Origin: an uncultured Lachnospiraceae bacterium
GTDB lineage: Bacteria; Bacillota; Clostridia; Lachnospirales; Lachnospiraceae
Assembly (NCBI GenBank): GCA_947625015.1
Contig: CANQMR010000005.1
Span: 1 to 64,000, forward strand
Length of the DNA stretch: 64,000 bases
Reading direction: 5' to 3'
The position numbers and the translations under genes are program-made. The first letter of the stretch is position 1. Each line of letters begins with the position of its first letter. Shown here in pieces: positions 35,456-52,636 of this stretch. The notes under the pieces were generated by a model. That model saw only the letters and a program-made list of their open reading frames with translations, was not told the DNA's origin and searched no databases.

Positions 35456-36781
35456 TCAACCTTTCTCTTTTCTCTCCCGCAGCATAAATTTAAGCGGGGT
35501 TCCCCGAAAGCCGAAAGCCTCCCGTATGCGGTTCTCAATATACCGGATATACGAAAAATGGCTCAGCTTTTTATCGTTTACAAAGATCACGAAGGCCGGC
35601 GGTTTTACTGCCACCTGCGTCATATAGTAAAGCCTGAGTTTTCTGCCCTTGTCAGAGGGCGGCTCCTGCATGGCAACGGCCTCGGATAAAATCTCATTGA
35701 GCACGCCGGTTCCCACCCGGAGGGCGTGGTTGTCAATCACCACATCCAACAATTCAAAAAGCTTCGGCAGCCGCTGTCCGGTTTTCGCGGAAATGTAAAT
35801 AATCTCCGCATAGGGCATGAACGACAAAATTCTCCGGATATCCTCGGCAAACCGGTACACCGTCTTGTCGTCCTTTTCAATGGCGTCCCATTTATTCACC
35901 GCAATAATCATACCCTTGCCCCGGTCATGGGCGATTCCCGCAATCTTGGCGTCCTGTTCCGTCACGCCCTCTGTGGCGTCAATGACAAGGACGCACACAT
36001 CCGCCCGCTCCACCGCCGTCACTGTACGAATAATGGAATACCTCTCTATTTCTTCCTTTACCTTGCTTTTCCGGCGAAGCCCCGCCGTATCGATAAAGAC
36101 ATATTCCCGTCCGTCTTTTTCAATAGTGGTATCAATGGCGTCCCTGGTGGTTCCTGCAATATCGGAAACAATCACCCGCTCTTCCCCTAACAGCTTATTG
36201 ATAATGGAGCTTTTTCCCACATTGGGTTTTCCGATTATGGCAATCTTGGGCCGCTCGTCCTCCTCTAAGTTTTTCATTTCCTCGGTAAAATGAGAGACCA
36301 CTTCATCTAACATATCTCCAAGCCCCAACTGGGAGGCGGCGGAAACAGGATGGGGATCTCCCAAGCCCAGATTATAAAATTCATAGACATCTGGCATGAA
36401 TTTCTCAAAATCATCTACCTTGTTGACCACCAGCACCACAGGCTTATGGGAACGGCGCAGCATATCCGCCACCTTATTATCTGCATCTACCAAACCCTGG
36501 CGGACATCCACCAAAAATATAATCACATCAGCGGTATCCATGGCAATCTGCGCCTGAGCCCGCATGCTCTTCAAAATAATATCCTCGCTCTCCGGCTCAA
36601 TTCCGCCGGTATCAATCATGGTAAAATGATAATCCAGCCAGTCCACATCTGCATATATGCGGTCCCTCGTAACGCCCGGCGTGTCCTTCACAATGGAAAT
36701 CCGGGAACCCGCCAACACATTAAACAGAGTGGATTTGCCCACATTGGGCCTTCCTACAATGGCTACAATCGGCTTACTCAT
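35456..36781 (-). CDS. der: Ribosome biogenesis GTPase Der
   Basis: A 441-residue GTPase with two tandem G domains ([12 protein letters not shown] near residue 8 and [12 protein letters not shown] near residue 184) and a C-terminal KH-like domain. It acts in 50S subunit assembly. Start supported by GAAGAGGAGAAAGAC. It has a good promoter directly upstream, beyond which lies the long palindrome copy A. Confidence 0.97.
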
Positions 36782-36858: not shown

Positions 36859-37436
36859 AAATCCCCGGCCATAACGTTCCTGCCCTCCATACCGCTCCCG
36901 TTTCTGTTCCGGCGCCTGCCCTTCTTTTCTCCGCGGATTTTATATTTATATAGCCGCCCCGGGATAATCCTTTCCCATTTTCCCGCACTGCCATCGGTTT
37001 TAAGAAATCCTGCTGCCGGGCCTTCCTGCATATTAGATTGCACGTGCTTACGAAGAAACTCGCACCGGGAAGGGGTGACTGGGAAACATTTGCAGCCCCT
37101 TTGAAAACGCCGGTACTTGCGAAGGCCCTATTATAAATCTGTTATTCAGTATATAATTAACAGGGCCTTCGCTTATGTACCGCTGCGTTTTCAACAGAGC
37201 GCAAGCGTGGCTGCAAAATGTTTGCCCAGCACCCCAAACCCGGTGCTCAGACACTTCTTCGCACGTGCAATATGCAGGAAGGTCCGGCAGCGGATTTCTA
37301 AAAAACCGCGTGTCGGGAAAATCGGGAAAAGGATTACCTGGGGCGGCAATTTACTCATATTCCTGCGGAGAAAAGAAGGGGAGCCGCCGGAATCAAAATA
37401 TCTGCGTAAGGGCAGGAAGGTTACGCCGGGGATTTT
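36859..37436. repeat. Giant imperfect palindrome, copy A
   Basis: Nearly the whole gap between pgeF and der is one inverted repeat centred near 37147. The core shared with copy B is 36907-37392 (486 bp). Extra inverted-repeat arms extend it to 36859 and 37436, the right one overlapping the last five codons of pgeF. Examples of paired blocks are GCGAAGGCCCT with AGGGCCTTCGC, TGCATATT with AATATGCA, and GCCGCCCC with GGGGCGGC. The terminal loop is around TATTCA. Internal open frames are broken relative to copy B, so it is not protein coding. It could be a structured RNA, a MITE-like element or a very large terminator. Confidence 0.85.
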
Positions 37437-38278
37437 AACATCATTACGCCGGCCAGATTGCCGCGGCGGCCATGGCTGGCCCGGTGGGAAAAGAAAAAGT
37501 TTGGGTTACAACAGGTGCAAAGGTCGGTAATATCCAGATGTTTGGGCAGGATTCCCGCCTCAAGCAGGGTGATTTCACAGGCTTTGTGAAGGTTTAGCTG
37601 GTACTTACCGTCGGGCTTTGGGTACAGCAGGGAGCTTCCATGTTCTTTTCCGAATACTTCCAGAAAGCGAAGGGCTACGTCTTCGCTTACCTCGTAGCAG
37701 TTCTGGCAGATAGACGGGGCAATGGCGCAGACAATATCCCGGCTTTCACAGCCGTATTCCGCCTTCATATATGATATCATTTTCCCGCCTATCCGCTCTA
37801 CCGTTCCCTTCCAGCCGGAATGAGCCATGGCAATCACCTTTTTAACCGGGTCGTAGAAAAACAAGGGTACGCAGTCCGCATAAAAAGTAATCAGCGGGAT
37901 TTCCGGTACATTCGTCACCAATCCGTCAATCTCCTTAATATCGCTTTCCCGGATGATTCCCTTGCCGCAGTCCTCCTCGCTTACTTTGTGAAAATGGGTT
38001 AAATGCACCTGGTCAGAAAAAACCAGCCTTTTTTCGTCATAGCCTGTTGCCGCAGCGAAACGCCTGTGATTTTCCATAACCTTTTCCCTGTCGTCTCCCC
38101 TGGAAAAGCTTAAGTTCATCGTTCCCAAATAGTCCTCAGACACGCCGCCTAAACGGGTGGAGAAAGCGTGCAGCAAATCCTTGCTGTATGCAGCAAGCCC
38201 GGGAAAGGTAATATAGGTTACGCCCTGATTTTCATTTATTATACAGGTCTTACTGTCATTGATATAATTTAACTTCAT
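37421..38278 (-). CDS. pgeF: Peptidoglycan editing factor PgeF (YfiH family)
   Basis: A 285-residue multicopper-oxidase-fold protein of the YfiH/DUF152 family. Characterised members hydrolyse mis-incorporated residues in peptidoglycan precursors, and some act on purine nucleosides. Motifs are SDQVHLTHF, DGLVTNVPEIPLITFYADCVPLFFYDP (as separate blocks) and AMAHSGWKGT, with metal-binding His/Cys. The C-terminus LAGVMMLKSPA is encoded inside the right arm of palindrome copy A, so the element reaches into the gene. Start: AGGAGGACGACCGGAAC. Confidence 0.92.
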   Translation of the reverse strand: MKLNYINDSKTCIINENQGVTYITFPGLAAYSKDLLHAFSTRLGGVSEDYLGTMNLSFSRGDDREKVMENHRRFAAATGYDEKRLVFSDQVHLTHFHKVSEEDCGKGIIRESDIKEIDGLVTNVPEIPLITFYADCVPLFFYDPVKKVIAMAHSGWKGTVERIGGKMISYMKAEYGCESRDIVCAIAPSICQNCYEVSEDVALRFLEVFGKEHGSSLLYPKPDGKYQLNLHKACEITLLEAGILPKHLDITDLCTCCNPNFFFSHRASHGRRGNLAGVMMLKSPA

Positions 38279-51086: not shown

Positions 51087-51443
51087 TTAATAACTTTCAT
51101 ATATATCTTTGGAAATCTGTTCAATCTCCTGAATCTTATCGGCAAGTTCCTTCCTGTCCGTCATCGCAGTAAGCTCCGTCGCCAGTTCGTGAATCCTGCT
51201 GACGCGCTCCTTTGTGTCTAAAAACTTCTCCACCAATAACAGCTTGCTCTCATACTCCTCTAAAATCCTGTCGCACCGCTTCACCAGATCATATACGCCC
51301 TGCCTGCTGATTCCCTCATCCCTTGCCACTTCGGAATAGGAAAGGTCGTTCAGCACAATATCCGCATATATGGATTTCTGATGCTCCGTCAACAATTCTC
51401 CATAAAAATCATAGAGCAAAGCCTGCCTGACCATCTTTTCCAT
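51087..51443 (-). CDS. ylxM: YlxM-family SRP-associated DNA-binding protein
   Basis: A 118-residue helix-turn-helix protein (LNDLSYSEVARDEGISRQGVYDLVKRC) resembling region 4 of sigma factors. YlxM associates with Ffh and the SRP in relatives. The ATG at 51443 follows AAGGGTGTGAAGTAC. A near-consensus promoter with flanking repeats lies just upstream, a likely place for autoregulation. Confidence 0.93.
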   Translation of the reverse strand: MEKMVRQALLYDFYGELLTEHQKSIYADIVLNDLSYSEVARDEGISRQGVYDLVKRCDRILEEYESKLLLVEKFLDTKERVSRIHELATELTAMTDRKELADKIQEIEQISKDIYESY

Positions 51444-51457
51444 GTACTTCACACCCT

Positions 51458-51536
51458 TGTAAAGTATTTTTTCTTGACACCAACTCTGCACAGTATACAG
51501 AAAAAAAACACATCTGTCAAGTCTTTTTTCTTGACA
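51458..51536. repeat. Two 22-bp direct repeats around the ylxM promoter
   Basis: TGTAAAGTATTTTTTCTTGACA (51458-51479) recurs as a copy at 51515-51536 with two differences. The upstream one carries the -35 (TTGACA on the minus strand) and is itself nearly palindromic (TGTCAAG/CTTGACA); the other lies between the start point and the ribosome binding site. The layout fits a two-site operator. Confidence 0.7.
51492..51520 (-). promoter_or_regulatory. Promoter of ylxM-ffh
   Basis: TTGACA (51515-51520), 17-base spacer, TATACT (51492-51497) on the minus strand; the best promoter match in the window. Start point about 42 bases before the ATG. Confidence 0.85.
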
Positions 51537-51555
51537 TCAAACCACAATACAACAT

Positions 51556-52052
51556 TTAATAATTTTCTCCCGGATATCCTTCTTTTACCCGCTAATTTTA
51601 TTTATAAAACCGCCGCAGGATAATCCTTTCCCATTTTCCCGCACTGCCATCGGTTTTAAGAAATCCTGCTGCCGGGGCCTCCTGCATATTAGATTGCACG
51701 TGCTTACGAAGAACTCGCACCGGGAAGGGGTGGCTGGGAAACATTTGCAGCCCCTTTGAAAACGCCGGTACTTGCGAAGGCCCTGTAATATATTTGCTAT
51801 TCAGCAGATAATGAACAGGGCCTTCGCTTATGTACCGCTGCGTTTTCGACAGAGCGCAAGCGTGGCTGCATAATGTTTGCCCAGCACCCCAAACCCGGCG
51901 CTCAGACACTTCTTCGCACGTGCAATATGCAGGAGGCCCCGGCAGCGGATTTCTAAAAAACCGCGTGTCGGGAAAATCGGGAAAAGGATTACCTTGCGGC
52001 GGTAATTTATTGATACTGGTGCGGGTAAAAGAAGGATACCCGCCAGAATTAA
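51556..52052. repeat. Giant imperfect palindrome, copy B
   Basis: A 497-bp inverted repeat between the MltG-like gene and the ylxM promoter, centred near 51804. Its shared core (51565-52048, 484 bp) aligns end to end with copy A (486 bp). Arms pair through blocks such as CTTCTTTTACCCGC with GCGGGTAAAAGAAG, ACCGCCGC with GCGGCGGT and CCGGGGCC with GGCCCCGG; the ends are TTAAT and ATTAA. A 152-residue minus-strand open frame spans it, but in copy A the frame is broken by an extra base, so I do not call it a gene. Confidence 0.85.
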
Positions 52053-52084: not shown

Positions 52085-52636
52085 TTATTGAGGATCGGAA
52101 ATGGCTTCCGCAATGGCTTTAAAATCCATTCCTTTGGTTAGCCTGTGGGTGCCTACTTTCATCCGGTCTGCATATCCATTTTCCACCAGATAGGTATCAA
52201 ATTCCTCCGCATTCTCAATGATTCCCAATTCCTTAAGCTGTTGGCAGACAGGATAAGAGGAGGAACCGCGCTCAATGGTAATCTCTACGCTGTCTCCGTC
52301 ATTTTCTTCCGTTTGCCCACCGGAAGAGTCTGCCTGTTCCTCTGTCGGCTGCGTTGTCTCCGTAATCTCCGTCGCCTCTTTTCTGGTATCCGGCTCCACA
52401 GAGGTTTCCTGTTCCGTTTTTGTGTCGTCTAAGGCCTCCGATGTATCGTCATGTTCGGTAAGCAGATTGCCAATTTTGCTGTCCGCCTCTACCATGCCCA
52501 AGGATTTGGCCCGCTTAATAATTTCATCATCTGTCAGCTTATAGGAAGAAAGGTTATCCCGGTAAGCTGTCAAAAACAGGATAGACGCAAATACAATACC
52601 GACGCCTAATCCCCTTAAAAAATATCTGAATTTCAT
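52085..52636 (-). CDS. MltG/YceG-like membrane protein, short form
   Basis: A 183-residue protein with an N-terminal membrane helix (about 6-25) and an E/T-rich linker (about 60-115). Its C-terminal domain (VEITIERGSSSYPVCQQL through GTHRLTKGMDFKAIAEAI) resembles the LysM-like part of endolytic transglycosylase MltG. The catalytic MltG domain with its glutamate seems missing, so enzymatic activity is doubtful. It ends the sigma-D block, 3 bases after the DUF6115-like gene. Its stop lies about 30 bases from palindrome copy B. Confidence 0.75.
   Translation of the reverse strand: MKFRYFLRGLGVGIVFASILFLTAYRDNLSSYKLTDDEIIKRAKSLGMVEADSKIGNLLTEHDDTSEALDDTKTEQETSVEPDTRKEATEITETTQPTEEQADSSGGQTEENDGDSVEITIERGSSSYPVCQQLKELGIIENAEEFDTYLVENGYADRMKVGTHRLTKGMDFKAIAEAISDPQ

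What the first reader, a model, noticed from the sequence alone, without database searches (positions are those of the whole stretch)
36859..37436. Two ~485-bp giant palindromes with compensated differences
Copies A (core 36907-37392) and B (core 51565-52048) each fold into one hairpin with arms of about 240 bases. They are not identical, and many differences are matched on the other arm. Examples: A C37021-G37282 is B G51677-C51937; A T37023-A37280 is B C51679-G51935; A G36953-C37347 is B A51609-T52003; A C36959-G37341 is B G51615-C51997; A C36929-G37370 is B A51587-T52026; A T36930-A37369 is B C51588-G52025. Base pairing thus seems to be kept while sequence drifts, which points to a functional folded RNA, or to a DNA hairpin under repair or selection. 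I know of no described RNA family or element that it matches.
Basis: seen in the sequence. Interest (0 to 1): 0.95.

Follow-up and report, generated by a model that had tools for sequence, protein, structure and literature searches.

The report
Bacterial hairpin repeat with matched arms
The two giant palindromes are copies of a repeat found many times in this genome and in related bacteria: a small conserved folded tip on long arms that seem to stay matched because DNA copying repairs one arm from the other, so their matched changes do not by themselves prove a working RNA.

Summary
In detail: A and B are real, non-identical giant palindromes, and all six cited compensated pairs check out. They are two of about 30 long copies in this genome. 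A shared apical unit of about 100 nt occurs at 54 places here, in 26/26 genomes of the genus (own included) and in 121/299 sampled genomes of the family. Rfam gives no match to the window at gathering scores.

Two layers must be kept apart. In the long arms, G·U and A·C mismatches are equally common (103:113), so no RNA strand is favoured; sister-species orthologs show 19 double, pairing-preserving changes against 0-4 in shifted registers; 6 of 15 comparable orthologs are inverted in place. This fits arm-to-arm DNA copying better than stepwise RNA compensation, although a second genus did not repeat it. The apical unit differs: 23/25 pairs covary and its mini-hairpin loop is GNRA in 86/86, so it looks like a selected RNA or ssDNA fold.

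In congeners the unit sits in 206-212-bp MITEs sharing ends with an IS1182-like transposon that lacks it. Mobility of the giant form and RNA function are not shown.

The parts
36859..37436 (+). Copy A, whole palindrome (arms 36859-37085 and 37222-37436 outside the apical unit)
   Evidence: both flanks match L054 in sister genome G023, same orientation
37086..37221 (+). Apical unit of copy A (P1-P4 plus GNRA mini-hairpin)
   Evidence: R2 match 79.5 bits, E 2.5e-21; this copy (L001) is among the sequences behind both models
51565..52048 (+). Copy B, whole palindrome (arms 51565-51740 and 51877-52048 outside the apical unit)
   Evidence: its left and right flanks lie at two different copies (L056, L055) in G023, a rearrangement
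51741..51876 (+). Apical unit of copy B
   Evidence: R2 match 76.6 bits, E 1.9e-20; this copy (L003) was in alignment A1 behind R1, not in A3 behind R2
35456..36781 (-). Flanking gene left of A: EngA/Der-type GTPase (context only)
   Evidence: PF01926 1.4e-61, PF14714 8e-34
37421..38278 (-). Flanking gene right of A: multicopper polyphenol oxidoreductase (laccase) family; its last 16 bases overlap the arm of A (context only)
   Evidence: PF02578 3.7e-81; coordinates
51087..51491 (-). Flanking gene left of B: YlxM-like (context only)
   Evidence: PF04297 2e-22
52085..52636 (-). Flanking gene right of B: weak YceG-like match below Pfam's cut-off (context only)
   Evidence: PF02618 1.7e-6, 28.2 bits against cut-off 32.4

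Best explanation
A and B are two old copies of an interspersed hairpin element spread through one bacterial family (Lachnospiraceae, by the titles of matching contigs). The element has two layers. (1) An apical unit of about 100 nt, a stem with a conserved internal loop, an apical hairpin and a side mini-hairpin closed by a GNRA loop, is under selection as a folded strand, most likely RNA, at the level of the element. (2) Two long arms stay complementary because DNA synthesis copies one arm from the other (template switching at the extruded hairpin, or arm-to-arm gene conversion). The same events flip the interior, and copies also recombine with each other. The element first spread as a MITE-type passenger, as its relatives in sister species appear to do on IS1182-like ends. 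Shown: copy number, family range, covariation, G·U = A·C in the arms, coupled arm changes and in-place inversions between two sister genomes, MITE ends and target duplications in congeners. Inferred: template switching rather than another conversion route; RNA rather than ssDNA at the tip; that the giant form arose from such a MITE.
For: Copies: about 30 long copies and 54 apical units (56 rows, two of them reverse-strand echoes). Range: 26/26 genus, G000 included; 121/299 family; 30/295 order, all 30 in the same family; 5/398 phylum, one outside the family. Arms: G·U 103 vs A·C 113 in 29 G000 copies, 91 vs 96 in 23 G023 copies (1 of 30 and 7 of 30 fetched loci left out as cut short or incompletely matched; p 0.54 and 0.77). 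Nine same-orientation ortholog pairs, flanks 3.4% diverged: outside the core 19 double changes, all giving Watson-Crick pairs, and 52 one-sided (25 A·C, 17 G·U, 10 other); in the core one double mismatch and one A·C (only pairs Watson-Crick in G000 counted). Ten shifted registers gave 0-4 doubles against 19. Inversion: 6 of the 15 ortholog pairs whose two flanks fall at one G023 copy; in all six the interior is reverse-complemented with switches about 180-260 nt from the centre. Tip: covariation 0.490 vs shuffled 0.172, 0/500 shuffles, 404 double-change cells, 23/25 pairs; GNRA 86/86 with six loop sequences, 102/103 in the looser set. Congeners: exact target duplications of at least 8 bp in 12/22 TIR-bounded elements, 0/462 mismatched controls; unit in 5/5 full-length MITEs given, not in two IS nor a 127-bp deletion copy; transposase IS1182-like. 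Arm homogenisation and spacer inversion are reported marks of template switching (PMC8604942, abstract; PMC8794818, abstract and passages).
Against: The double-change excess did not recur in a second genus: 6 ortholog pairs of G255/G380 gave 2 double Watson-Crick, 1 double mismatch, 28 one-sided and 63 gapped, and there 6/6 pairs keep orientation. Some double changes in the middle zone could come from conversion by other copies. The tip's own G·U excess is fragile: over all 25 pairs G·U 45 vs A·C 48; 34 vs 11 only in well-paired columns chosen afterwards and without one C·A-rich position, 34 vs 29 with it. No ends or target duplication were found for the giant form, and 27 of 30 G000 loci have a flank at a G023 copy, so its mobility is not shown. 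G000 has no match to the transposase at E 1e-20. Inversions rest on two separately assembled draft genomes. Covariation at the tip could also be helped by template switching, and A3 was fitted to model R1.
Confidence: 0.64

Rival explanations
1. The whole 480-580-nt hairpin is a functional long RNA, and compensatory mutation under selection keeps it paired.
For: Extreme folding z-scores; compensated differences between A and B; coupled changes between sister species.
Against: G·U and A·C mismatches equal in the arms; orientation to genes near random; interiors inverted in place in 6/15 ortholog pairs; stems outside the tip differ between genera while the tip is conserved.
Confidence: 0.08
2. 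The element is an invertible DNA switch: a site-specific recombinase acts on the outer stem repeats and flips the interior to control neighbouring genes.
For: 6/15 in-place inversions, all with switch points in the outer part of the arms, about 180-260 nt from the centre; sites lie in gene spacers.
Against: The interior is itself palindromic; no recombinase gene stood out among the 25 broadest neighbour clusters of non-G000 loci (stretches of about 1-8 kb); no promoter was tested. In five of six flipped copies (not L025) one of the two longest perfect arm runs falls in or near the switch zone, once about 38 nt is added for the tip (the 38 nt is my estimate), so homology alone may place the breaks. 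6/6 ortholog pairs keep orientation in another genus.
Confidence: 0.1
3. The apical unit is itself the mobile entity: a ~100-nt folded RNA or ssDNA that lodges at hairpin tips of any origin (MITE hairpins, terminator-like palindromes).
For: Same unit on unrelated stems in 28 family loci, only 3 with MITE-like TIR letters on at least one side; some stems look by eye like intrinsic terminators; eight G135 copies share a nearly identical tip (one site varies) on differing stems. At one G255 site, relative G447 has a bare AT-rich hairpin (3 of 100 shuffles fold as well) and G380 a 5-bp stub (1 of 100), both without the unit.
Against: At that same site three relatives (G521, G400, G462) have no hairpin beyond shuffles and G478 only a weak one (24 of 100); the bare hairpin of G447 has other letters than the G255 stem; at a second site G380 lacks a whole 183-bp segment, stem included. 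A matching empty stem was not seen.
Confidence: 0.16
4. Plain old MITEs with no selected part; conservation of the tip is recent ancestry plus gene conversion among copies.
For: MITE ends and target duplications in congeners; nearly identical tips within a genome; orthologs that carry tip variants shared with other loci of their own genome (L012 with L003/L004, L060 with L063/L065).
Against: Tip found in 121/299 sampled family genomes with 23/25 covarying pairs and GNRA 86/86; conversion within a genome cannot keep GNRA across genera.
Confidence: 0.1

Closest known systems
Bacterial MITEs (QMITE, Chunjie, ERIC, RUP, BOX and others, as in the review PMC10969869; passages seen)
   Same: Short non-coding, intergenic, multi-copy, TIR-bounded with target duplications, stable hairpin, sharing ends with an IS (in congeners)
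   Different: A tip conserved across much of a bacterial family with GNRA mini-hairpin and heavy covariation, absent from the two IS tested; in the window's genome, arms of about 240 nt with no ends found
IS1182-family insertion sequences
   Same: The 491-aa transposase sharing MITE ends matches NF033551 (IS1182) best, and Pfam DUF772 plus sub-threshold DDE domains
   Different: 77.5 and 70.8 bits against a curated cut-off of 270; the two IS carry no apical unit
REP/BIME repeats of enterobacteria (recalled, no call)
   Same: Dispersed hairpins in gene spacers, sometimes in inverted pairs (L034, L163, L177)
   Different: Much longer; neither a GTAG-type foot nor a Y1 transposase was searched for
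Template-switch mutations at inverted repeats (PMC8794818, abstract and passages; PMC8604942, abstract)
   Same: Arm homogenisation, multi-base compensation and spacer inversion
   Different: Here long natural palindromes in bacteria, flipped in 6/15 comparable ortholog pairs (flank divergence 3.4%, measured on the nine unflipped pairs)

Membership tests
MITE moved by an IS1182-like transposase (sister-species elements) | Terminal inverted repeats shared with an autonomous IS | tested here: met
   TAGGNNNTTGCGAAAC ends in 24/26 genus genomes; same ends on IS of 1753 and 1770 bp
MITE moved by an IS1182-like transposase (sister-species elements) | Target-site duplication | tested here: met
   exact, at least 8 bp, in 12 of 22 fetched elements; 0/462 controls. 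Ten of 22 had none exact of that length; three of those had one of 10-12 bp with one mismatch
MITE moved by an IS1182-like transposase (sister-species elements) | Transposase passes the curated IS1182 cut-off | tested here: not met
   77.5 and 70.8 bits against 270; so 'IS1182-like' only
MITE (giant copies A and B themselves) | Defined ends and target duplication | tested here: inconclusive
   None seen by eye in aligned copies (the listing was cut); no systematic test was made
MITE (giant copies A and B themselves) | Insertion polymorphism between close relatives | tested here: not met
   27 of 30 G000 loci have at least one flank at a G023 copy; 3 (L016, L024, L029) had no matched flank among the fetched G023 copies and are undecided
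Known Rfam RNA family | Match at the gathering score | tested here: not met
   0 of 4227 families in the window; nine weak matches, all under gathering, in six loci
Structured RNA (apical unit) | Covariation above background | tested here: met
   A3: 0.490 vs 0.172, 0/500 shuffles; slid registers at most 0.158. The alignment was fitted to the model, which leans towards the structure
Structured RNA (apical unit) | RNA-specific pairing (G·U over A·C) | tested here: inconclusive
   All 25 pairs 45 vs 48; well-paired columns 34 vs 11 without, 34 vs 29 with, the C·A-rich position
Structured RNA (apical unit) | Transcription | not testable with these tools
   no expression data
REP-like element of Y1 transposases | Associated Y1 (RAYT) transposase | not tested

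The most novel reading that the evidence does not exclude
A selfish ~100-nt structured RNA (or ssDNA) module, a bacterial counterpart of a SINE tail, has persisted across a whole bacterial family by riding on successive unrelated carriers, including IS1182-like MITEs and giant palindromes. Its fold, not its ends, is what is selected, perhaps because it recruits a transposition or replication factor.
Probability: 0.23. Interest if true: 0.85.

Novelty: new variant of a known kind. Interest (0 to 1): 0.61.

Why it matters
Matched double changes in a stem are usually read as proof of a working RNA. Here a natural system shows such changes with G·U and A·C equal and with the interior flipped, so arm-to-arm DNA copying can mimic that proof; the G·U versus A·C count and the inversion test are cheap filters. 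The apical unit is a family-wide, multi-copy fold that I found described nowhere searched, and one transcript map could place it as RNA or DNA. It also offers a system to measure palindrome inversion and correction in bacteria: the two giant-palindrome genomes give no SbcC match, while 16 of 26 genomes of the genus match strongly, though none over the curated cut-off.

Tried and rejected
Plasmid and phage collections: no match to A at distant blastn. IMG/VR pattern scan: 0. So no sign of a plasmid or phage vector at those sensitivities.

Recurrent neighbour gene: 1706 open segments of at least 80 aa from fetched loci (most G000 and G023 loci left out) were clustered; of the 25 broadest clusters printed, read by eye and without a domain search, none looked like a transposase.

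Terminator-tip insertion: several stems in other genera look by eye like terminators, but G135 stems have T-rich left and A-rich right flanks, the wrong polarity. Empty sites are mixed: no hairpin beyond shuffles in three relatives, a bare hairpin of other letters in G447, a stub in G380, a weak one in G478. I therefore raised that rival from 0.14 to 0.16, lowered the best explanation from 0.66 to 0.64, and set the novel case at 0.23 (was 0.22).

Cis-acting mRNA element: rejected for lack of orientation bias (28 ++ against 34 --, 9 divergent, 7 convergent, 17 without two called neighbours, of 95 loci). ORF calls there are crude, and orthologs and paralogs are not independent.

SbcC loss as the cause of giant arms: fits (no match in G000 and G023, the latter 85% complete), but G024 (77% complete) also has none and 7 others only weak partial matches, without known giants; no genome passed the curated cut-off, and SbcD was not searched. 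Left as permissive only.

Coupled changes in a second genus: looked for and not found.

Literature: searches found no description of this repeat; the library lacks most subscription papers.

One search stopped with an error after its first group because my pattern missed the G135 cores; the other two groups were redone.

Full report
Observation. In this genome the long form was fetched at 30 places, one cut by a contig end, with more partial matches listed. The apical unit occurs at 54 places once two reverse-strand echoes are dropped from 56 rows. In the window only A and B carry it.

Anatomy. Copies share a central part, while outer stems differ strongly in sequence yet stay complementary. 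The centre, aligned over diverse species, is P1, P2, an internal loop, P3 (CGGTAC/GTACCG), an apical hairpin P4, and on the 3' side a two-pair mini-hairpin with a tetraloop. In 86 distinct sequences kept at E 1e-12 the loop is GNRA in 86 (GAAA 43, GCAA 23, GAGA 14, GGAA 3, GGGA 2, GCGA 1) and the two closing pairs change on both sides in 5 and 12 sequences. In the looser set of 103 it is GNRA in 102; the exception is a weak match, L034:490-591, with AAAA. Twenty-three of 25 pairs show double changes; covariation is 0.490 against 0.172 shuffled, and at most 0.158 when slid. Alignment A3 was fitted to model R1, which leans towards this structure.

Range. R1 hits 26/26 genomes of the genus, own included, with 1 to 111 matches each, and 121/299 of the family sample, scored with stricter filters and 12 candidates a genome. 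R2 hits 30/295 in the order sample, all 30 in the same family, and 5/398 in the phylum sample, four in the family and one outside. Rfam: no match in the window at gathering. Plasmids and phages: none.

Why the arms look like DNA copying. If an RNA strand were selected, G·U should far exceed A·C on that strand. With a scoring that treats both as mismatches, the arms give 103 G·U and 113 A·C in 29 copies of G000, and 91 and 96 in 23 copies of G023 (L029 and seven G023 loci were left out). In 47 stems from other genera the count is 44 and 61. In nine same-orientation orthologs with flanks 3.4% diverged, changed pairs outside the core were 19 double changes, all Watson-Crick, and 52 one-sided (25 A·C, 17 G·U, 10 other), with 14 gapped; in the core one double mismatch and one A·C. 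Shifting the partner by 3 to 15 bases gave 0 to 4 doubles. Six of the 15 orthologs whose two flanks lie at one G023 copy are inverted in place; in all six the interior is reversed, with switch points about 180-260 nt from the centre, in the outer part of the arms. Others have exchanged flanks (L003/L004 with L055/L056; L005, L006, L009 with L059/L061), which is recombination between copies. Arm homogenisation and spacer inversion are reported marks of template switching at inverted repeats (PMC8604942, abstract only; PMC8794818, abstract and passages). Against this: in a second genus the excess of doubles was absent (2 double Watson-Crick, 1 double mismatch, 28 one-sided, 63 gaps) and orientation was kept in 6/6, although one pair there (L299/L306) has stems that barely align on flanks about 7% diverged.

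Mobility. In congeners the unit lies inside elements bounded by TAGGNNNTTGCGAAAC ends (pattern in 24/26 genomes). Of 22 such elements that I chose to fetch, 20 of 127-212 bp and two of 1753 and 1770 bp, 12 have exact target duplications of 9-12 bp, against 0/462 in mismatched pairs. The two long ones encode a 491-aa protein with DUF772 and weak DDE matches; its best NCBIfam model is IS1182, well below the curated cut-off. R2 finds the unit in 5/5 full-length short elements given, but not in the two IS nor in the 127-bp deletion copy. A full-length transposase occurs in 2/26 genomes, fragments in 3, none in G000, at E 1e-20. G000 also holds shorter copies; of 20 fetched, several of those visible end in GCGAAACGC/GCGTTTCGC (listing cut). 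In 28 loci of the family sample only 3 show such TIR letters on at least one side; the same tip sits on other stems.

Empty sites. Among seven G255 loci tried I examined two. At the ilvN-ilvC-like spacer (gene names by eye), no relative of six has the unit: G521, G400 and G462 have no hairpin beyond shuffles, G478 a weak one (24 of 100 shuffles as low), G447 a bare AT-rich hairpin of other letters (3 of 100) and G380 a 5-bp stub (1 of 100). At the second, G380 lacks a 183-bp segment, stem included. So stems mostly came with the element or formed later, but lodging at existing hairpins is not excluded.

Context. Copies lie in gene spacers. Among 95 loci, tandem sites were 28 with and 34 against the tip's strand. 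So the fold is strand-specific but its orientation is not, which points to selection for the element rather than for the neighbouring gene.

Reading. I hold most likely a MITE-type hairpin element with a selected tip and arms kept matched by DNA copying (0.64). RNA at the tip is favoured by strict GNRA and covariation. The G·U evidence there is weak: 45 against 48 over all pairs; 34 against 11 in well-paired columns chosen afterwards, or 34 against 29 if one position with 18 C·A cells is counted. So ssDNA remains open. The two genomes with giant arms gave no SbcC match while 16/26 of the genus match strongly (E below 1e-30, none over the curated cut-off); from general knowledge SbcCD cuts long hairpins, so its loss may permit long arms, but other genomes without a strong match have no known giants.

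Noticed in passing
G000, G023, G024: No SbcC match at E 1e-3 in the two genomes with giant palindromes and in G024; 16 of 26 genus genomes have strong matches, 7 only weak partial ones; none passes the curated cut-off.
   Followed up: partly
L038, L039, L051, L100, L124, L130: Copies of the unit lie near secY/adk-like genes (read by eye from ORFs) in several species, suggesting very old, vertically kept sites.
   Followed up: no
window 51087-52048; L050, L107, L121, L151: B lies next to a ylxM-like gene; L107, from a differently named genome, shares neighbour genes with G023 loci and also carries the unit.
   Followed up: no
L034, L144, L163, L171, L177, L159: Apical units in inverted pairs a few hundred bp apart, reminiscent of paired REP elements.
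   Followed up: partly
L182-L190 in G013: About 20 nt just inside the left end of these MITEs differ between copies while the matching right side is nearly constant.
   Followed up: no
L299 versus L306: Orthologous elements in sister species have stems that barely align yet are each self-complementary, on flanks about 7% diverged.
   Followed up: partly
A2 columns 34-99: A P3 pair is C·A in 18 of 103 sequences and never G·U.
   Followed up: no
P4 of many units: Two recurring P4 forms, by eye: six pairs with a 7-nt loop like GTATTTT, or a stem with tandem G·A mismatches.
   Followed up: no
L068 (G023 C90): Near-perfect palindrome of 280 pairs running into the flank near a contig end; may be an assembly fold-back.
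   Followed up: no
L309 (G447) and L312 (G478), ilvN-ilvC-like spacer: Bare hairpins of other letters (weak in L312), without the unit, at the site where G255 carries the element.
   Followed up: partly
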